From a virus: 38,706 bases of DNA. Position numbers and translations under genes: made by a program. The DNA is taken from positions 1 through 38,706 of IMG/VR virus record IMGVR_UViG_3300030104_002809; one strand, 5' to 3'. The notes beneath the pieces were generated by a model. It searched no databases, was not told the DNA's origin, and was given only the letters and a program-made list of their open reading frames with translations. The first letter of the stretch is position 1. Each line of letters opens with the position of its first letter. Shown in pieces: positions 2 to 7,043 of this stretch.

Positions 2-43
2 AAAATGGCTGAGTTAGAAGAGGAATCAATGCCTTGGGATTAA
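2..43 (+). CDS. 3' end of a truncated gene with acidic C-terminus
   Basis: Only the last 13 codons are inside the window. The reading frame ends in an acidic tail (LEEESMPWD) whose TAA shares its last base with the ATG of the next gene. Acidic tails closing on an aromatic/Pro motif are typical of single-stranded DNA-binding proteins, where the tail recruits replication partners, so an SSB-like protein is one possibility. This is an inference from very few residues; no fold can be seen. An in-frame ATG lies at 5 but is more likely internal. Confidence 0.4.
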   Translation, partial: KMAELEEESMPWD

Positions 44-315
44 TGAGTGCGGCTTGGAAGAAGAAAAAAGTTAATATTGTAGGTCCTGATTGGACTGATG
101 AAAATAGAAAAGCCTATAGTTGGTGTATAAACAATGGAATTAAAATATCTCCATGGGCAGCAAGTAGTGATAGAGATAATTATTTTTGGTGGATAGATGT
201 AGATGTTAATGGAGCTAAAAAAAGATCACCATATAAATATAACGGAAAACAAATCAACGCTAAAATATTTGAATTATATAGATTTTATTATGATAAAAAC
301 AAAAAGAAACTTTGA
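43..315 (+). CDS. conserved hypothetical phage protein, 90 aa
   Basis: I do not recognise a named family. The protein is rich in aromatic residues (four Trp in the first half, a Tyr-rich C-terminus) and Lys, with no membrane segment or signal peptide. The ATG at 43 is preferred over an in-frame TTG at 34 because it overlaps the upstream stop as TAATG, the coupling used throughout this window. Its 3' end overlaps the start of the thymidylate-synthase-like gene by 26 bases. The neighbourhood (DNA and nucleotide enzymes) suggests an early, DNA-related role, but nothing in the sequence proves it. Confidence 0.7.
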   Translation: MSAAWKKKKVNIVGPDWTDENRKAYSWCINNGIKISPWAASSDRDNYFWWIDVDVNGAKKRSPYKYNGKQINAKIFELYRFYYDKNKKKL

Positions 316-943
316 TACAGCAAGTGATGCTTTTGATTATTTTTATAAAAAAATAAACAACGATGGTTTAAAGTTTGATAATACAAAGGCTTTATTTAAT
401 GTAGGTTTTTATATTAAAAATCCTTTAAACAATCACATATTAGACGAAGATAGACAGTGGAACTGGGAATATGCAGATGCTGAATGGAAATGGTACCTAT
501 CAGGAGATCCTAACATAATTAAGTTAGGCCAAATATACGGTAAGATACCACCAATATGGGAACGAATGGCAGATAGCAATGGTAATGTAAATAGTAATTA
601 CGGTTATCAATGGGAACGTGATCATCAATTAGATTATGTTGTAGCTAAATTAAAAGATAATCCTAATACTAGACATGCAGCTATAAGTATTTATGATGCT
701 AAAGAATGGAAAAAATATCGTAAAGATACTCCTTGTACTTATGCAGTTCAATTTACTGTATTAAATAAAAAGCTTTATATGTCTGTTGTAATGCGTTCTA
801 ATGATCTCTGGTACGGTTTCTGTAATGATCAGTACTGTTTTTCAAAGCTACAAGAATTAGTTGCAGAGAGAACAGGATATAAGGTTGGTACATATTTTCA
901 TTATGCGCACAACCTACATTTGTATAACGATAAATTAAAATAA
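290..943 (+). CDS. thymidylate synthase-fold enzyme, possibly dCMP hydroxymethylase
   Basis: The 217-aa protein has the thymidylate synthase fold. Visible landmarks are E65 in EWKWYLSGD, W90 and YGYQWE (104-109), an Arg in NTRHA (128), the catalytic nucleophile C149 in TPCTYAVQF (the usual PCH has Thr instead of His), the phosphate-binding RSND (169-172) and HLY (210-212). Such enzymes transfer a one-carbon unit from methylenetetrahydrofolate to C5 of dUMP or dCMP. Counting from the conserved Gly of the RSxDxxxG block, the position that is Asn in dUMP enzymes (N177 in E. coli) is D180. Asp there is the known hallmark of dCMP-specific enzymes such as T4 gp42, so dCMP hydroxymethylase is plausible; an adjacent Asn179 makes the alignment ambiguous. 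An in-frame start at 203 is rejected because it adds 29 non-homologous residues inside the upstream gene. MazG-like genes follow directly. Confidence 0.88.
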   Translation: MIKTKRNFDTASDAFDYFYKKINNDGLKFDNTKALFNVGFYIKNPLNNHILDEDRQWNWEYADAEWKWYLSGDPNIIKLGQIYGKIPPIWERMADSNGNVNSNYGYQWERDHQLDYVVAKLKDNPNTRHAAISIYDAKEWKKYRKDTPCTYAVQFTVLNKKLYMSVVMRSNDLWYGFCNDQYCFSKLQELVAERTGYKVGTYFHYAHNLHLYNDKLK

Positions 944-944
944 T

Positions 945-1712
945 ATGTATTATTTATACCACATACCGGGTAAAAAGATTGGTGTAACACGTAATCTTAA
1001 TAATCGTGTTACGTTAATTCAGGGCTATGGCCCTAGTGAATATGAAGTTCTTGATCGATCGAATGATATAGATTATATATCAGACAAAGAGATAGAACTT
1101 CAAAAGTCTTACGGCTATAAGGTCGATAGAAAGAAATATAAAAATTTATTTAAGAAAATGAAAATAAACGTAACAGAACAAACTTCAACTTTTGCAGTTC
1201 CTTTAAACAAATTAAAAGAACATCTAGTAGACAACATAGGAATGTCCTGGGAAACATCTCACGGCACTTTTGAATTAGATATGCAAACAATCACATGGAT
1301 AACAGAAAACGCGATAACGTCAATGTATAACGATAAGAGATCGTATATTTATAATAAAGCTTTTGCTAATTATTTTAAAGCTGTAAGATACTTTAAACCT
1401 TGTAGTAAAAAACCTTTAAAGATGTTTGAGCAAATAAGAGATTGGGCTAGAGAAAGAGGTCTTTATGAAAAAGGAGATGTAAACACTCAATACATCAAGC
1501 TTCAAGAAGAAGCTGGTGAGCTTGCTAAAGCTTTATTAAAAGACGATCAACCAGAAGTTATAGATGCTATTGGAGATATGGTAGTTGTATTAACTAACTT
1601 AGCTCATCAAAGAGGTGTACATATAGAAACTTGTATAGCTGAAGCTTATAAAGTGATTAGTAAAAGAACAGGTAAAATGATTAACGGAACATTTGTAAAA
1701 GATGAAAATTAA
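945..1712 (+). CDS. GIY-YIG-like N-domain fused to MazG-like pyrophosphohydrolase
   Basis: This 255-aa protein appears to have three parts. Residues 1-70 look like a diverged GIY-YIG nuclease domain: YYLYHI, then KIGVTRNLNNRV with the expected Arg, and a Glu in DKEIEL (47-52). Residues 75-155 are not recognised. Residues 158-255 are a MazG-type all-alpha NTP pyrophosphatase: EEAGE (188-192) and EVIDAIGD (204-211) supply the acidic Mg2+ ligands of the EExxE and ExxD motifs. MazG-like enzymes hydrolyse (d)NTPs to monophosphates and, in phages, can clean the nucleotide pool (T4 dCTPase belongs to the same superfamily). The gene starts one base after the upstream stop. The nuclease part lacks the textbook signature and may be inactive. 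Confidence 0.8.
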   Translation: MYYLYHIPGKKIGVTRNLNNRVTLIQGYGPSEYEVLDRSNDIDYISDKEIELQKSYGYKVDRKKYKNLFKKMKINVTEQTSTFAVPLNKLKEHLVDNIGMSWETSHGTFELDMQTITWITENAITSMYNDKRSYIYNKAFANYFKAVRYFKPCSKKPLKMFEQIRDWARERGLYEKGDVNTQYIKLQEEAGELAKALLKDDQPEVIDAIGDMVVVLTNLAHQRGVHIETCIAEAYKVISKRTGKMINGTFVKDEN

Positions 1713-1989
1713 AACAAAAGATAAAATCGTTCAACAAGTCTTAAGAAAGATGGATGAACGAAGCCTTGTAGGTCAGAAAAAATATGGGGCTACGATGATG
1801 CAAGAAATAGAAGGTCAAGAAAAAGATCTTAACCGATTCCTAGTTGATGTACAAGAGGAATTAATGGATGCATTATTATATATTGAAGCAGCTAAAAGAT
1901 GTTTACAAGATGAAATAGAAGAGGTTGTTTACAATAAGTTTACTAAAGATGTAACTAATATAAAAGTAAATGAAGAAGAAATACTCTAA
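1702..1989 (+). CDS. small all-alpha NTP pyrophosphohydrolase-like protein
   Basis: A 95-aa helical protein with QEELMDALLYIEAA at 51-64, the acidic helix pattern (E52, E53, D56, E62) of the MazG/dUTPase all-alpha superfamily, preceded by a GQKKYG segment (24-29) often seen in short phage members. It probably hydrolyses a deoxynucleoside triphosphate; the substrate cannot be read from sequence. It overlaps the preceding MazG-like gene by 11 bases and the following nuclease by 20, so the three are translated as one block. Two MazG-like proteins in a row is unusual and fits an unusual nucleotide pool. A purely structural helical protein is the alternative. Confidence 0.65.
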   Translation: MKIKTKDKIVQQVLRKMDERSLVGQKKYGATMMQEIEGQEKDLNRFLVDVQEELMDALLYIEAAKRCLQDEIEEVVYNKFTKDVTNIKVNEEEIL

Positions 1990-2452
1990 AAAACGCGGTC
2001 CAGTCCGATCTAAGAAAACTAAGCACGATGGTATTCAGTTTGCTTCAGGACTAGAAGTTTATATGTATAAAGCTTTAAAAGAAGCTAATATAGTAGCGGA
2101 ATACGAACCAACAAGTTATACTTTAATGGAAAGGTTTGATTTTGAAGGCGCGTCATATGAAAGATGTAGCAATGGTAAAGGAGAATTTAAAAACAGAGGA
2201 TGTAAGACGATATTACCTATAACATATAAACCAGATTTCGTAGGTAGAGATTTTGTAATTGAATGTAAAGGAAGAGCTAATGAGTCTTTTCCTTTACGTT
2301 GGAAATTATTTAAATCTTGGATGTCTTTACACGCAAACAAAATGACTTTGTTTAAACCTCAAAACCAAGCTGAATGTGATCTTACTATAAGATACATTAA
2401 AGAGATGAGAAAAAACCATAGAAAAAATGCAAAGAAACAAACAGGCCTCTAA
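1970..2452 (+). CDS. T7 endonuclease I-like PD-(D/E)XK nuclease (Holliday junction resolvase)
   Basis: This 160-aa protein shows the catalytic set of phage T7 endonuclease I: FASGLE with E29, an EYEPTSY strand, TYKPDF with D89, and VIECKG with E98 and K100, matching E20/D55/E65/K67 of the T7 enzyme in order. T7 endonuclease I cuts branched DNA during recombination and before packaging and helps degrade host DNA. About 25 extra residues, including C66 and C78, lie between the first Glu and the Asp. The N-terminus is very basic (KKKYSKKRG). A related phage family of recombination nucleases (DUF1064/RusA-like) is the alternative label. It overlaps both neighbours and sits in the early nucleotide/DNA operon. 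Confidence 0.85.
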   Translation: MKKKYSKKRGPVRSKKTKHDGIQFASGLEVYMYKALKEANIVAEYEPTSYTLMERFDFEGASYERCSNGKGEFKNRGCKTILPITYKPDFVGRDFVIECKGRANESFPLRWKLFKSWMSLHANKMTLFKPQNQAECDLTIRYIKEMRKNHRKNAKKQTGL

Positions 2453-2736: not shown

Positions 2737-2864
2737 TGGCAAAAAGAATAGCAATATCAACATACATAATTAAACATAAGAAAAGAAGACCTGGTGTTCA
2801 TTCTAAAAACGCCTCCAAAGGACAAACAGGTTATAAAAAACAATATAGAGGCCAAGGACGCTAA
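2736..2864 (+). CDS. tiny basic protein with KKRRPGVHSKN motif, 42 aa
   Basis: This 42-aa frame is linked by TAATG overlaps on both sides: its ATG shares a base with the previous stop and its own stop shares a base with the ATG of the ribonucleotide reductase beta gene. It is extremely basic, with KKRRPGVHSKN in the middle and an Arg/Gly C-terminus (YKKQYRGQGR). From memory, proteins of this look recur in marine phages, but no function is known to me. The charge suggests RNA or DNA binding. The perfect fit between its neighbours makes it a convincing gene despite its size. Confidence 0.7.
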   Translation: MAKRIAISTYIIKHKKRRPGVHSKNASKGQTGYKKQYRGQGR

Positions 2865-3859
2865 TGGGAATACCACTATTTACAGAAAGAATACCATATA
2901 AACCTTTTGAATATCCTGAGTATTATACTGAGGGTTGGTTAAAACAAGCACAAGCATTTTGGTTACATACAGAAATACCTATGAGTGGTGATGTCAAAGA
3001 CTGGAATGAAAAACTAACTCCAGCAGAGAAAAACTTAGTAGGTAATATATTATTAGGTTTTGCACAAACAGAATGTGCAGTAAGTGATTACTGGACGCAA
3101 AACGTCGTATCATGGTTTCCTAAACATGAGATACAGCAAATGGCTATGATGTTCGGCTCACAAGAAACAATACATGCTGTAGCTTACAGTTATTTAAATG
3201 AAACACTTGGACTCGAAGATTATGAAGCTTTTTTACACGAGCCTGCAACCGCTGCAAGGTTTGATAACCTGGTTAGTTATGTCGGGTCCGATCCTGTTGG
3301 TATTGGTAAGTCTCTTGCTACTTTTTCTGCTTTTGCTGAAGGGGTTAGTTTATATTCTGCCTTTGCTGTATTATATAGTTTTCAAATGAGAAACATGCTA
3401 AAAGGTATAGGACAACAAATGAAGTGGTCTGTAAGAGATGAATCGTTGCATAGTAAAATGGGTTGTCAATTATTCAGACATATGTGTTCTCAAATACCAG
3501 GATTAAAAGAAGAATGCGAGCCACATATATATTTAGCTGCATTAGAAATGCATAATGCAGAAATGTCTTATATTACTAAAATGTTTGAAGCCGGTGATAT
3601 AGAAAACTTAACAGCTTATGACTTACAACACTTCATCAAAAAAAGAGTCGGTGACAAGCTTGCAGAGCTCGGATATACCGAAAGAAAATACAAACAGTGG
3701 GACTGGACAGAAAAGTCTTATGACCAAAAGTCAATTGATAAAATGGCTTGGTTCGACCATCTTACTGGGGGTCACACTCACACTGATTTTTTTGCTATTA
3801 GGCCGACTGATTATAGCAAAGCAAATGAAGGAGAAGATTTTGAAGATATTTGGGAATGA
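2864..3859 (+). CDS. nrdB: class I ribonucleotide reductase, beta subunit
   Basis: This 331-aa protein is the di-iron radical-generating subunit of ribonucleotide reductase, which together with NrdA converts ribonucleoside diphosphates to deoxy forms for phage DNA synthesis. Metal ligands are visible in order: E70 in AQTEC, E101 and H104 in QETIHAVAY, E159 in FAEGVSLY, and E193 and H196 in RDESLH. Y108, seven residues after E101, matches the radical tyrosine (Y122 in E. coli). The first ligand is Glu where E. coli has Asp. The acidic C-terminal tail (EGEDFEDIWE) is the usual docking peptide for the alpha subunit. Length is normal for the family. The alpha subunit gene lies two small genes downstream in the same operon. 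Confidence 0.96.
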   Translation: MGIPLFTERIPYKPFEYPEYYTEGWLKQAQAFWLHTEIPMSGDVKDWNEKLTPAEKNLVGNILLGFAQTECAVSDYWTQNVVSWFPKHEIQQMAMMFGSQETIHAVAYSYLNETLGLEDYEAFLHEPATAARFDNLVSYVGSDPVGIGKSLATFSAFAEGVSLYSAFAVLYSFQMRNMLKGIGQQMKWSVRDESLHSKMGCQLFRHMCSQIPGLKEECEPHIYLAALEMHNAEMSYITKMFEAGDIENLTAYDLQHFIKKRVGDKLAELGYTERKYKQWDWTEKSYDQKSIDKMAWFDHLTGGHTHTDFFAIRPTDYSKANEGEDFEDIWE

Positions 3860-4101: not shown

Positions 4102-4325
4102 AAGAAAATAAATTAATTTTAATGCAAAAAAAAATAGATAAATTAACAAATGTTGTTAATGGTTTAATACAAAAATTACAACAAGTAGATATGATGTCTA
4201 AAGGTACTTTAACGGCTTTTCAATTACATATAGGTGAAGATACTTGGAAAAAGTTAGTTGAAGAATTACAAGATGTAGAAAAAAGAACTCAACCCGAAAA
4301 AAAGTTTGAAACAGATGTGGAATAA
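4098..4325 (+). CDS. small coiled-coil protein, 75 aa
   Basis: A soluble 75-aa protein with an N-terminal heptad-like helix (QKKIDKLTNVVNGLIQKLQQ) and an acidic/basic C-terminal helix. Its ATG overlaps the previous stop as ATGA, and its 3' end overlaps the NrdA start by 11 bases, so it is translationally linked to NrdA. No family recognised; it could oligomerise or act as an accessory to a neighbour. The function is not readable from the sequence. Confidence 0.65.
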   Translation: MKENKLILMQKKIDKLTNVVNGLIQKLQQVDMMSKGTLTAFQLHIGEDTWKKLVEELQDVEKRTQPEKKFETDVE

Positions 4326-6039
4326 TGAATGGAAAAAAGGAGTTGATTACCCAAGTTGGGGAGACACTGATGTATACAGAAAAACTATAGGTGGAGGTTA
4401 TTTATATAACGGTGAAACACCTAAAGAAGCTTATGAACGTGTTTGTTATCACGTTGCTAGACGTTTAGAGCGTCCGGAATTAGCTAAAACTTTTTTTGAT
4501 TATATATGGAAAGGTTGGTTGTGTTTAGCTTCTCCTGTGTTATCTAATACAGGTACAGACAGAGGTTTACCTATATCTTGTTTTGGAATCGATGTTGCAG
4601 ATAGTATATGGGACATTGGCCAGAAAAATTTAGAAATGATGCTATTAGCAAAACACGGAGGCGGGGTTGGTATTGGTATTAATCAAATTCGTCCTGCCGG
4701 AGCAAATATAAAAGGAAATGGAACATCTGATGGAGTTGTGCCTTTTTGTAAGATCTACGACTCAACTATACTTGCAACGAACCAAGGATCTGTCCGAAGA
4801 GGAGCTGCAAGCGTTAATATTAATATTGAACACTCCGATTTTGAAGAGTGGTTGGAAATACGAGAACCTAAAGGAGACATTAATCGTCAATCCCTCAACT
4901 TACACCAGTGCGCTGTGGTCGGCGACAAGTTTATGCGAAGAGTTGAAAACGGAGATAAAGCAGCGAGAAGATTATGGGGAAAGTTATTACAAAAACGTAA
5001 AGCAACTGGAGAACCTTATATTTTATTTAAGGGAAATACAAACAAAAGTAACCCAACAGCTTATAAAAAACATGGGTTAAAAGTACATATGACGAACATA
5101 TGTTCTGAGATTGTATTACATACAGACGAATCTCATAGTTTTGTTTGTTGTTTATCATCATTAAACTTAGCTAAGTATGATGAGTGGAAAGGAACAAATT
5201 TAATATATGATTCAATCTGGTTTTTAGACGGTGTCTTAGAAGAATTTATACAAAAATCAAAAGGTAAAGTTGGATTTCATAATTCAGTTAGATCAGCAGA
5301 AAAAGGAAGAGCATTAGGTTTAGGCGTTTTAGGTTGGCATACTTATTTACAGGAAAAAGGTTTACCATTTGAAGGATTATTATCACAATATGAAACAAGA
5401 AAAATATTTAGTCAAATTAAAATCGAGTCTGAAAGAGCTTCAATGGCTCTCGCAGAAACTTTTGGAGAACCTCTTTGGTGTGTTGGTACTGGTTTACGTA
5501 ACACCCATTTACGCGCTATTGCTCCTACTGTTAGTAATTCTAAGCTTAGTGGAAACGTTAGTCCAGGTATTGAGCCGTGGGCCGCTAATGTATTTACAGA
5601 GCAAAGTGCTAAAGGAACTTTTATTAGAAAAAATCCAACTCTTAAAAAACTATTACGCAAAAACAAAATAGATAATGAAAAGATATGGAATAAAATATTA
5701 AAAGACGGAGGATCAGTACAAGGAGTAAAAGAACTTAATAAAGTTATGGTTGGACCTTATAATGATATACCAGCTAAAGATGTTTTTAAAACATTTAAAG
5801 AGATTAATCAATTAGAATTAATTAATCAAGCAGGTATTAGACAGCAATACATAGATCAATCAGTTAGTTTAAACTTAGCTTTTCCTAGTGTTGCTACACC
5901 TAAGTGGATTAATAAAGTACATTTTGAAGCTTGGAAAAAAGGTATTAAAACCTTATACTACACTAGAACTGAGTCAGTATTACGTGGAGATATTGCTGAA
6001 CAAGCAATGGACGAAAGCTGTCTTAGTTGTGACGGATAA
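4315..6039 (+). CDS. nrdA: class I ribonucleotide reductase, alpha subunit (short form)
   Basis: This 574-aa protein is the catalytic subunit of ribonucleotide reductase. From the ATG at 4315 (an upstream TTG at 4306 is less likely) one sees SPVLSNTGTDRGLPISCFG with redox C89, the active-site NICSE (N261, C263 thiyl Cys, E265), the partner Cys in FVCCLSSLN (278-279), APTVSNSKLSGNVSPGIEP, the radical-transfer pair Y548-Y549 in KTLYY, and a C-terminal CLSC (569-572) that re-reduces the active site. It is much shorter than E. coli NrdA (761 aa) and has no N-terminal ATP-cone, so the dATP off-switch of overall activity should be missing, as in many phage reductases. It closes the + strand operon and is followed by paired terminators. 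Confidence 0.95.
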   Translation: MWNNEWKKGVDYPSWGDTDVYRKTIGGGYLYNGETPKEAYERVCYHVARRLERPELAKTFFDYIWKGWLCLASPVLSNTGTDRGLPISCFGIDVADSIWDIGQKNLEMMLLAKHGGGVGIGINQIRPAGANIKGNGTSDGVVPFCKIYDSTILATNQGSVRRGAASVNINIEHSDFEEWLEIREPKGDINRQSLNLHQCAVVGDKFMRRVENGDKAARRLWGKLLQKRKATGEPYILFKGNTNKSNPTAYKKHGLKVHMTNICSEIVLHTDESHSFVCCLSSLNLAKYDEWKGTNLIYDSIWFLDGVLEEFIQKSKGKVGFHNSVRSAEKGRALGLGVLGWHTYLQEKGLPFEGLLSQYETRKIFSQIKIESERASMALAETFGEPLWCVGTGLRNTHLRAIAPTVSNSKLSGNVSPGIEPWAANVFTEQSAKGTFIRKNPTLKKLLRKNKIDNEKIWNKILKDGGSVQGVKELNKVMVGPYNDIPAKDVFKTFKEINQLELINQAGIRQQYIDQSVSLNLAFPSVATPKWINKVHFEAWKKGIKTLYYTRTESVLRGDIAEQAMDESCLSCDG

Positions 6040-6120: not shown

Positions 6121-6444
6121 TTATTTTTGAGATATTAAAAAATATATTCTATTTTGAATTTCTTCTTTTGTTGCTGTTATTTTAAAACTTAAATCAGCTT
6201 TCCATTGACCCCTTGGTTTACCATTCTTATCTAACAATATAATTAAAGGAACTGATTTTATTTGTTCCTTTAAAGCAGGCGCTTGGTCTTCTAATAATGC
6301 GTATTGTATTTTTGCTTCTTTTATACCTCTTAAATCAAAATTATTTGATTCATTCCATTTAGCATTTATATGCATTAAAGTGTACTCTTGTGCTGTCGCT
6401 ATAAAAGCAAACAACAATAATATAATTGTAATTAAATTTTTCAT
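6121..6444 (-). CDS. exported thioredoxin-like protein lacking catalytic cysteines
   Basis: This 107-aa protein begins with a signal peptide (MKNLITIILLLFAFIATA, cleavage expected after A18), so the mature domain of about 89 aa should be periplasmic. The rest follows the thioredoxin pattern: a first strand into NAKWNESNN, a central helix, then SVPLIILLDKNGKP with the family's cis-Pro at P66, and GQWKADL. Where thioredoxins carry WCxxC the sequence is W30-N31-E32-S33-N34, both Cys replaced by Asn, so it cannot do disulfide exchange. It is the last gene of the - strand operon, overlapping its upstream neighbour by four bases (ATGA). A binding or envelope-lysis role is possible; the fold call rests on pattern reading. 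Confidence 0.75.
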   Translation of the reverse strand: MKNLITIILLLFAFIATAQEYTLMHINAKWNESNNFDLRGIKEAKIQYALLEDQAPALKEQIKSVPLIILLDKNGKPRGQWKADLSFKITATKEEIQNRIYFLISQK

Positions 6445-6740
6445 TTGTTATAAACTTTATCTTCTAATTTTTCTATTGATTCTTTATTCTCTAAAATATC
6501 TTCTTTTAGTCCTTCTGTGGATTTTTCTATTTGTAGAATAGTCGAACGTATCAACTCATCTTTAAGTTGAAATTCCATTTGTTTTACGAACTCCTCAGGT
6601 GCGACCTGATTTTTTAATTGTTCAATATCACCTTGTAGAGTAAACCACATGCTTGCTAAAGCTATTACACCTCCAACTATCATCCCAATAGTTTTAAGGT
6701 CTAGTTGTACTTGAGTGTCTTCTCCTATTTGTGTTGCCAT
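6441..6740 (-). CDS. single-TM coiled-coil protein, paralogue A
   Basis: A 99-aa protein with an N-terminal cytoplasmic stub, one transmembrane helix (about 18-36, IGMIVGGVIALASMWFTL) and a charged coiled coil to the C-terminus ending EDKVYNK. The layout is shared with the gene just upstream (6744-7043): the same LDLKTI lead-in, the GG in the membrane helix, and the closing K(L/I)EDK(V/I)Y. The two are therefore tandem paralogues. Topology resembles an inner-membrane spanin or a membrane anchor, but no family is certain. The gene lies in an envelope-directed set with a lipoprotein and an exported thioredoxin-like protein. Confidence 0.7.
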   Translation of the reverse strand: MATQIGEDTQVQLDLKTIGMIVGGVIALASMWFTLQGDIEQLKNQVAPEEFVKQMEFQLKDELIRSTILQIEKSTEGLKEDILENKESIEKLEDKVYNK

Positions 6741-6743
6741 ATT

Positions 6744-7043
6744 TTATCTTCTATAAATTTTATCTTCTATTTTATCTAAACGTTTATCATGATCTTCAGC
6801 AAGTTTATCCATCATTTCTTCAAGATACACTAGCTTTTGTTCTATAATCTCATGCGATTGTGCCGGAGGTAATTTTTTTGCTTCTTCAATACCAGCTTTA
6901 TTCAACTGAATCTGCTCAGTTAAAGTAGTATAAGTCATTGTTATAGATATTAAACCACCTAAAATTAAAATAATAGTTTTTAAATCTAAATTTAAGTCTG
7001 GCTTTCCATCGCCGTCTATATCTACACCTACTTCTTTTTTCAT
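6744..7043 (-). CDS. single-TM coiled-coil protein, paralogue B, with DxDGDG loop
   Basis: The sister of the next gene downstream: 99 aa, LDLKTI followed by one transmembrane helix (about 24-42, ILILGGLISITMTYTTL) and a coiled coil ending IEDKIYRR. Its N-terminus carries DIDGDGKPD (8-16), the spacing of an EF-hand/dockerin-type Ca2+-binding loop, which paralogue A lacks. If real it would bind Ca2+ on whichever side of the membrane the N-terminus faces. Role unknown; spanin-like or membrane-tether functions are guesses from topology. Confidence 0.7.
   Translation of the reverse strand: MKKEVGVDIDGDGKPDLNLDLKTIILILGGLISITMTYTTLTEQIQLNKAGIEEAKKLPPAQSHEIIEQKLVYLEEMMDKLAEDHDKRLDKIEDKIYRR

What the first reader, a model, noticed from the sequence alone, without database searches (positions are those of the whole stretch)
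290..1989. Candidate cytosine-modification cassette: TS-fold enzyme with Asp at the dUMP/dCMP switch, followed by two MazG-like proteins
Seen: in RSNDLWYGFCND the residue four after Gly176 is D180 (codon 827-829), the position that is Asn in dUMP enzymes (E. coli N177). Known: Asp there sets dCMP specificity in T4 dCMP hydroxymethylase, and dCTP-destroying all-alpha pyrophosphatases (T4 gp56 superfamily) accompany such pathways. Here two MazG-like genes follow immediately. Inference: the phage may replace or decorate cytosine in its DNA.
Basis: partly seen in the sequence, partly recalled or inferred. Interest (0 to 1): 0.75.

Follow-up and report, generated by a model that had tools for sequence, protein, structure and literature searches.

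The report
Phage enzyme for hydroxymethylating cytosine nucleotides
A marine flavobacterium-type phage carries an enzyme built like the one phage T4 uses to make hydroxymethyl-cytosine, so its DNA probably carries altered cytosine; close relatives replace this gene, in the same place, with a different enzyme predicted to make methyl-cytosine instead.

Summary
ORF 290-943 encodes a 217-aa thymidylate-synthase-fold protein whose D180 (codon 827-829) aligns without a gap to T4 dCMP hydroxymethylase D179 and E. coli ThyA N177. D180 is present in 169 of 169 relatives that could be read, while residue 179 varies (N, I, V, Y), so N179 is not the switch. Its closest solved structure, by sequence and by fold, is T4 dCMP hydroxymethylase, and a tree groups it with T4 gp42. 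It keeps T4's hydroxylation residues and those that the flavin-type dCMP hydroxylase lacks, and has no ThyA folate tail. Best reading: a dCMP 5-hydroxymethylase. The next gene has a C-terminal MazG/PRA-PH domain and is adjacent in 80 of 80 relatives; the second downstream gene was not confirmed as MazG. Unexpectedly, in sister phages the same slot holds a full-length ThyA-like protein. All 48 carry Asp at position 177, against Asn in all 28 readable ThyA-like relatives outside this neighbourhood. These are predicted dCMP methylases, like those of the XP12 group, and the two enzymes never co-occur. The locus is therefore an exchangeable dCMP-modification slot. Modified cytosine in the DNA itself is inferred, not shown.

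The parts
290..943 (+). dCMP 5-hydroxymethylase-like protein, 217 aa (TS fold, no ThyA-type C-terminal folate tail)
   Evidence: Pfam PF00303 E 2e-27; best PDB sequence hit T4 dCMP hydroxymethylase E 7e-19; AF2 pLDDT 92, top Foldseek hits 1b49/1b5d T4 dCMP hydroxymethylase; tree with T4 gp42 98/93
827..829 (+). codon of D180, the dCMP/dUMP switch residue (= T4 D179, E. coli ThyA N177)
   Evidence: invariant in 169/169 readable relatives
734..736 (+). codon of C149, catalytic nucleophile (= T4 C148)
   Evidence: invariant in A1
725..727 (+). codon of D146 (= T4 D145, water-activating residue; Leu in ThyA)
   Evidence: invariant; T4 D145N abolishes activity (PMC6400193)
593..595 (+). codon of S102 (= T4 S94, water-coordinating residue)
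   Evidence: invariant; PMC6400193
945..1712 (+). 255-aa protein: weak GIY-YIG-like N-terminus, unknown middle, C-terminal MazG/PRA-PH pyrophosphohydrolase domain; candidate dCTPase
   Evidence: Pfam PF01503 7e-7, PF03819 1e-4; directly downstream in 80/80 marine relatives and beside both slot variants
1702..1989 (+). 95-aa helical protein with invariant EExMD motif; MazG-like nature not demonstrated
1970..2452 (+). DUF1064 protein (PHROG Holliday junction resolvase family), conserved neighbour
   Evidence: PF06356 3e-7, phrog_190 6e-12
2864..3859 (+). NrdB, ribonucleotide reductase small subunit, conserved neighbour
   Evidence: PF00268 1e-52
4306..6039 (+). NrdA, ribonucleotide reductase large subunit; only the barrel and all-alpha domains hit, no ATP-cone
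   Evidence: PF02867 6e-94, PF00317 3e-10

Best explanation
The 217-aa enzyme is a folate-dependent dCMP 5-hydroxymethylase of the T4 gp42 type. D180 binds and protonates cytosine, C149 attacks C6, methylene-THF supplies the carbon, and a water held by S102, Y104 and D146 attacks the exocyclic methylene to give 5-hydroxymethyl-dCMP. That would be phosphorylated and built into phage DNA, shielding it from host restriction. The MazG-domain protein next door probably lowers the competing dCTP pool. Shown by sequence and model: fold, residues, clade, conserved linkage, and same-slot exchange with an Asp-bearing ThyA-type enzyme. Inferred: catalytic activity, MazG substrate, and presence of modified cytosine in the DNA.
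For: T4 dCMP hydroxymethylase is the best PDB match by sequence and by fold; the tree groups the FCND clade with T4 gp42 at 98/93. D180 is invariant in 169/169 while 179 varies. T150 replaces ThyA H147, the other position tied to cytosine modification in MetaGPA (PMC8670742). S102, Y104 and D146 match T4 S94, Y96 and D145, whose mutants lose activity (PMC6400193; alignment). S170 and R128 match the deoxy-preferring enzymes rather than MilA's A176/K133 (PMC5175136). There is no C-terminal folate tail, as in T4 dCH. T4-type beta-glucosyltransferase homologues lie about 0.7-0.9 kb upstream of FCND-clade enzymes in L167-L170 and L183; ATCCB and vipetofem relatives are followed by genes annotated beta-glucosyltransferase. 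PF01503 co-occurs with TS in cytosine-modified contigs (PMC8670742). The slot is exchanged with ThyA-like proteins that have Asp177 in 48/48.
Against: No biochemical or mass-spectrometric data. No dNMP kinase, glycosyltransferase, dCMP deaminase or DNA polymerase was detected in the lineage, so host kinase and polymerase would have to accept the modified nucleotide. H129 replaces the second phosphate-binding Arg (T4 R124), though other hydroxymethylase relatives also vary there. Absence of DHFR does not discriminate, because the predicted methylase phages lack it too.
Confidence: 0.8

Rival explanations
1. dCMP 5-methylase: the enzyme methylates dCMP (XP12-like) and the phage DNA carries 5-methylcytosine.
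For: Same Asp switch; ThyA-type enzymes with Asp introduced at 177 make 5-methyl-dCMP (cited in PMC8670742); sister phages carry a ThyA-type Asp enzyme in the same slot.
Against: The window enzyme lacks the ThyA C-terminal tail, has D146 and S102 like T4, and falls on the hydroxymethylase side of the tree, whereas the XP12-group and slot ThyA-D enzymes fall on the ThyA side. T4-type beta-GT homologues occur beside FCND-clade relatives.
Confidence: 0.1
2. Flavin-dependent dCMP hydroxylase (5-hydroxy-dCMP synthase, RB69 type).
For: Same superfamily, short protein, Asp at the switch; RB69-type structure 9iqc is also a fold hit.
Against: RB69ORF048c (the protein of 9iqc) has lost T4 E60, D171, G175 and Y218 (F, N, V, F), while the window keeps E65, D172, G176 and Y212, the folate-chemistry residues. 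No sugar-pathway genes were seen in the lineage.
Confidence: 0.03
3. An ordinary dUMP thymidylate synthase or dUMP hydroxymethylase despite the Asp.
For: The Pfam, PHROG and NCBIfam family names are all thymidylate synthase.
Against: NCBIfam scores are far below the curated cut-offs (81 against 327 bits), as for T4 gp42 itself; Asp is invariant; D179N in T4 costs up to about 3600-fold in kcat (PMC6400193); host ThyAs keep Asn.
Confidence: 0.04
4. CMP (ribo) hydroxymethylase, MilA-like.
For: MilA is the second-best PDB family.
Against: MilA's ribo-determinants K133 and A176 are R128 and S170 here, the deoxy type.
Confidence: 0.03

Closest known systems
T4 gp42 dCMP hydroxymethylase (PDB 1b49, 6a9a)
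   Same: Fold; catalytic Cys, Glu, Asp switch, water-binding Ser/Tyr/Asp; no ThyA-type tail
   Different: About a third identical over the aligned part; 217 instead of 246 aa; His for the second phosphate Arg; no glucosyltransferase or dNMP kinase detected in the lineage
Asp177 thymidylate synthase homologues of cytosine-modified virome contigs (MetaGPA, PMC8670742)
   Same: Asp at 177, non-His at 147, co-occurrence with PF01503 PRA-PH domain
   Different: There also with carbamoyltransferase and deaminase domains; the flavophage lineage and the in-place exchange with ThyA-type enzymes are not described in the passages read
XP12-group phages (DLP4, AAT-1; XP12 itself has 5-methylcytosine for cytosine)
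   Same: TS homologue with Asp next to a nucleotide pyrophosphohydrolase
   Different: ThyA-side, with C-terminal extension, GLPYD motif, DHFR and dCMP deaminase; resembles the alternative occupant of the slot, not the window enzyme
Bacteroides phage BF486P2 gene 32 (annotated dCMP 5-hydroxymethyltransferase)
   Same: 45% identical, FCND motif, same clade
   Different: Different genome context; carries a second, degenerate TS paralogue
MilA CMP hydroxymethylase (PDB 5b6d, 5jnh)
   Same: Hydroxymethylase residues and Asp switch
   Different: Ribo-type K133/A176; long C-terminal helical region

Membership tests
T4-type dCMP 5-hydroxymethylase | TS fold with catalytic Cys and Glu | tested here: met
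   AF2 pLDDT 92 and Foldseek; C149, E65
T4-type dCMP 5-hydroxymethylase | Asp at the ThyA N177 position | tested here: met
T4-type dCMP 5-hydroxymethylase | Ser94/Tyr96/Asp145 water site for hydroxylation | tested here: met
   S102, Y104, D146, all invariant in the family
T4-type dCMP 5-hydroxymethylase | No C-terminal folate-capping tail | tested here: met
   ends 5 residues after Y212
T4-type dCMP 5-hydroxymethylase | Monophyly with T4 gp42 | tested here: met
   98/93; T4 gp42 is a long branch, and the join was unresolved when other long-branch rows were included
T4-type dCMP 5-hydroxymethylase | Makes 5-hydroxymethyl-dCMP | not testable with these tools
   needs an enzyme assay
Thymidylate synthase ThyA | Asn177, His147, C-terminal tail | tested here: not met
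   D180, T150, no tail; NCBIfam score far under cut-off
Flavin-dependent 5-hydroxy-dCMP synthase (RB69, 9iqc) | Loss of the folate-chemistry Glu/Asp/Gly/Tyr set seen in RB69ORF048c | tested here: not met
   E65, D172, G176, Y212 kept
MilA-type CMP hydroxymethylase | Lys133 and Ala176 | tested here: not met
   R128, S170
MazG/PRA-PH pyrophosphohydrolase (gene 945-1712) | Pfam MazG-superfamily domain above cut-off | tested here: met
   PF01503 29.9 against 21.3 bits; PF03819 22.6 against 22
MazG/PRA-PH pyrophosphohydrolase (gene 945-1712) | dCTP as substrate | not testable with these tools
   inferred from linkage only
MazG-like (gene 1702-1989) | MazG-superfamily domain or fold | tested here: inconclusive
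   no family hit, weak model without fold match
XP12-type dCMP methylase | ThyA-side enzyme with C-terminal extension and Asp | tested here: not met
   window on the hydroxymethylase side; met by the alternative slot occupant

The most novel reading that the evidence does not exclude
The locus is an exchangeable cytosine-modification slot. In one lineage of marine flavophages the dCMP hydroxymethylase (5hmC type) and an independently evolved ThyA-type dCMP methylase (5mC type) are repeatedly swapped between the same flanking genes, so closely related phages would carry chemically different cytosines, plausibly to escape modification-dependent restriction. The MazG-domain protein serves either chemistry.
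Probability: 0.6. Interest if true: 0.75.

Novelty: new variant of a known kind. Interest (0 to 1): 0.62.

Why it matters
Asp at the TS switch is an established sign of cytosine-modifying phages, but the proof usually comes from single, unrelated phages. Here one abundant marine lineage offers a natural experiment: neighbours with alignable DNA on both sides of the slot carry either a predicted hydroxymethylase or a predicted methylase, always with Asp. That makes the switch rule, the hydroxymethyl-versus-methyl determinants (tail, T4 D145 and S94 positions) and the pressure from modification-dependent restriction directly testable in existing virome data. It also suggests that 5hmC-type DNA is common among marine phages related to those of Flavobacteriia.

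Tried and rejected
N179 as the switch: rejected, because it varies to I, V or Y while D180 does not. Flavin-type hydroxylase: rejected by residues. DHFR absence as evidence for hydroxymethylation: rejected after a control, since predicted methylase phages lack DHFR too. MazG presence as a diagnostic: weakened, since elemo phage, where no TS homologue was found in the 40 kb read, has its own PRA-PH gene. Thymidylate kinase search (PF02223): uninformative for T4-type dNMP kinase, because it does not ring in T4 either. A search for relatives of the L204 GIY-YIG-MazG protein gave only two loci. No paper on this lineage's base modification was found in the held library; Lee et al. 2025 on 5-hydroxycytosine is not held. 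Fold search of the 95-aa protein gave nothing.

Full report
WHAT WAS CLAIMED AND CHECKED. The ORF, the motif RSNDLWYGFCND and the GAT codon at 827-829 are there. Pfam gives PF00303 at E 2e-27; the next gene has a MazG/PRA-PH domain (PF01503 E 7e-7); the 95-aa gene has no MazG hit.

PLACEMENT OF D180. phmmer against PDB chains puts T4 dCMP hydroxymethylase first (E 7e-19) and MilA CMP hydroxymethylase next, before any ThyA, with GFCND over T4 GFRND without a gap. An alignment with T4 gp42, E. coli ThyA, SPO1 dUMP hydroxymethylase, MilA and phage relatives gives D180 = T4 D179 = ThyA N177. Among 80 marine relatives residue 180 is Asp in all and residue 179 is N in 73, I in 6 and V in 1; among 80 relatives of the Bacteroides phage BF486P2 enzyme it is Asp in all; among 10 MAG contigs it is Asp in the 9 readable.

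CHEMISTRY. The T4 ternary structure and mutants assign S94, Y96 and D145 to the water that makes the hydroxymethyl group, and note that T4 dCH lacks the folate-capping tail of ThyA (PMC6400193). The window has S102, Y104 and D146 at these places, invariant in 48 aligned relatives, and ends five residues after Y212. The MilA work assigns ribo- versus deoxy-preference to K133/A176 versus R/S (PMC5175136); the window has R128 and S170. MetaGPA found positions 177 and 147 to be the two most associated with cytosine-modified contigs, and the PRA-PH domain co-occurring with TS (PMC8670742); the window has D180 and T150 and a PRA-PH neighbour. The AlphaFold model (pLDDT 92) finds T4 dCMP hydroxymethylase first in the PDB.

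THE FLAVIN RIVAL. The fold search also returned 9iqc, a riboflavin-dependent monooxygenase with dCMP. It is the protein of RB69ORF048c or nearly so, and a 2026 paper names the Mosigvirus enzyme 5-hydroxy-dCMP synthase (PMC13390438). RB69ORF048c has F, N, V and F where T4 has E60, D171, G175 and Y218; the window keeps E65, D172, G176 and Y212. The window is the folate type.

PHYLOGENY. With RB69ORF048c and a degenerate paralogue left out, the hydroxymethylase side (window, T4 gp42, MilA, ATCCB, vipetofem, SPO1) separates from the ThyA side at 100/99. The FCND clade joins T4 gp42 at 98/93 and is itself 95/94. In an earlier tree that included those rows the T4 join was unresolved, so the exact sister is less sure than the side. 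Within the FCND clade, loci L167-L170 and L183 carry homologues of T4 beta-glucosyltransferase (E 1e-15 to 1e-19 for the three compared) about 0.7-0.9 kb upstream, and the ATCCB and vipetofem relatives are followed by annotated beta-glucosyltransferases. Such enzymes need a hydroxymethyl acceptor (established for T4).

NEIGHBOURHOOD. The window is a 38.7-kb virus record. Its structural proteins are related to Flavobacterium elemo, Cellulophaga and Maribacter phages. Ten further genomes keep the neighbourhood primase-helicase, TS, GIY-YIG-like/MazG, 95-aa, DUF1064, NrdB, NrdA, with ligase, pyrimidine-dimer glycosylase, sigma-like factor, ERF and exonuclease upstream. MazG lies directly downstream of TS in 80/80. 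Pfam scans of nearly all proteins of one genome with end repeats (G009) found no glycosyltransferase, deaminase, DHFR, kinase or DNA polymerase; family searches of 12 records found no PolA, DHFR or deaminase. Unglucosylated 5hmC is therefore the simplest product, with host kinase and polymerase doing the rest. This is inference.

THE UNEXPECTED PART. Searching from the MazG neighbour gave 82 loci, of which 73 have the FCND enzyme (71 within 60 bp) and 9 do not. In all of those nine except L245, which begins inside MazG, the same slot holds a ThyA-like protein with PPCH and a C-terminal tail but with GLPYD, i.e. Asp for Asn177 (L236 is cut at its N-terminus and L274 is broken by a frameshift or assembly error). 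A search from that protein gave 48 loci with the MazG neighbourhood: 44 read Asp by pattern and the remaining four read GLPYD on inspection, so 48/48. Of the 32 relatives without that neighbourhood, 28 could be read and all 28 have Asn. No locus has both enzymes; ten FCND genomes have no ThyA-like gene and sixteen GLPYD records have exactly one PF00303 gene. The ThyA-like slot enzyme is closest to ordinary ThyA (E 3e-70 to Elizabethkingia ThyA) and forms a 100/100 clade inside the Asn-bearing ThyA side, so its Asp arose independently. Phages DLP4 and AAT-1, relatives of the 5-methylcytosine phage XP12, also have GLPYD. The slot enzyme is therefore predicted to be a dCMP methylase.

EXCHANGE. 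DNA of the two kinds of phage aligns on both sides (for example L317 against L004: 74% over 5.7 kb upstream, 73-92% downstream) but not across the slot and part of the small ORF before it; the downstream match starts at the MazG start codon. On trees of neighbour proteins the slot type changes at least 6 times (primase-helicase) or 13 times (NrdB); these are quick trees, and recombination can inflate the counts. The two occupants come from different TS subfamilies yet share Asp at the switch, which is strong comparative evidence that the slot handles dCMP.

WHAT IS NOT SHOWN. Activity, the substrate of MazG, and the state of cytosine in the DNA. The 95-aa protein remains unassigned. DHFR absence was checked as a discriminator and failed, being absent in both groups.

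VERDICT. The window gene is a new member of the dCMP hydroxymethylase family. The exchangeable slot is a new arrangement, at the level of a new variant of a known kind.

Noticed in passing
L251:3153-4001, L252, L253, L274, L278, L283, L305, L311-L356, L359, L362 (same slot as window 290-943): Full-length ThyA-like protein with Asp at position 177 (GLPYD) in place of the window enzyme; predicted dCMP methylase.
   Followed up: yes
window 945-1712: Fusion-like protein: GIY-YIG-like start (weak), unknown middle, MazG domain at the C-terminus; no record in the phages collection covers 80% or more of it.
   Followed up: partly
G009 (L111-L114), G013 and other full-length relatives: No DNA polymerase found by Pfam in G009 and no PF00476 in 12 records, although primase-helicase, ligase and RNR are present.
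   Followed up: partly
L082:17156-17917 (Bacteroides phage BF486P2 gene 27): Second TS homologue annotated as dCMP hydroxymethyltransferase lacks the catalytic Glu (L57) and the Gly before the switch (L165) but keeps Asp; perhaps a degenerate or differently acting paralogue.
   Followed up: no
L111:12104-16513: C-terminal crAss-phage muzzle domain (PF25729, E 3e-11) in a structural protein of this flavophage lineage.
   Followed up: no
window 6441-6740 and 6744-7043: Two adjacent 99-aa proteins fall in one similarity cluster, apparently a tandem duplication.
   Followed up: no
window 34-315: Small ORF before the TS gene (phrog_5945, unknown function); the unalignable stretch in sister phages takes in part of its counterpart.
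   Followed up: partly
MW202828.1 (L124:8958-9632): A podovirus of the same structural lineage carries an annotated flavin-dependent thymidylate synthase (ThyX).
   Followed up: no
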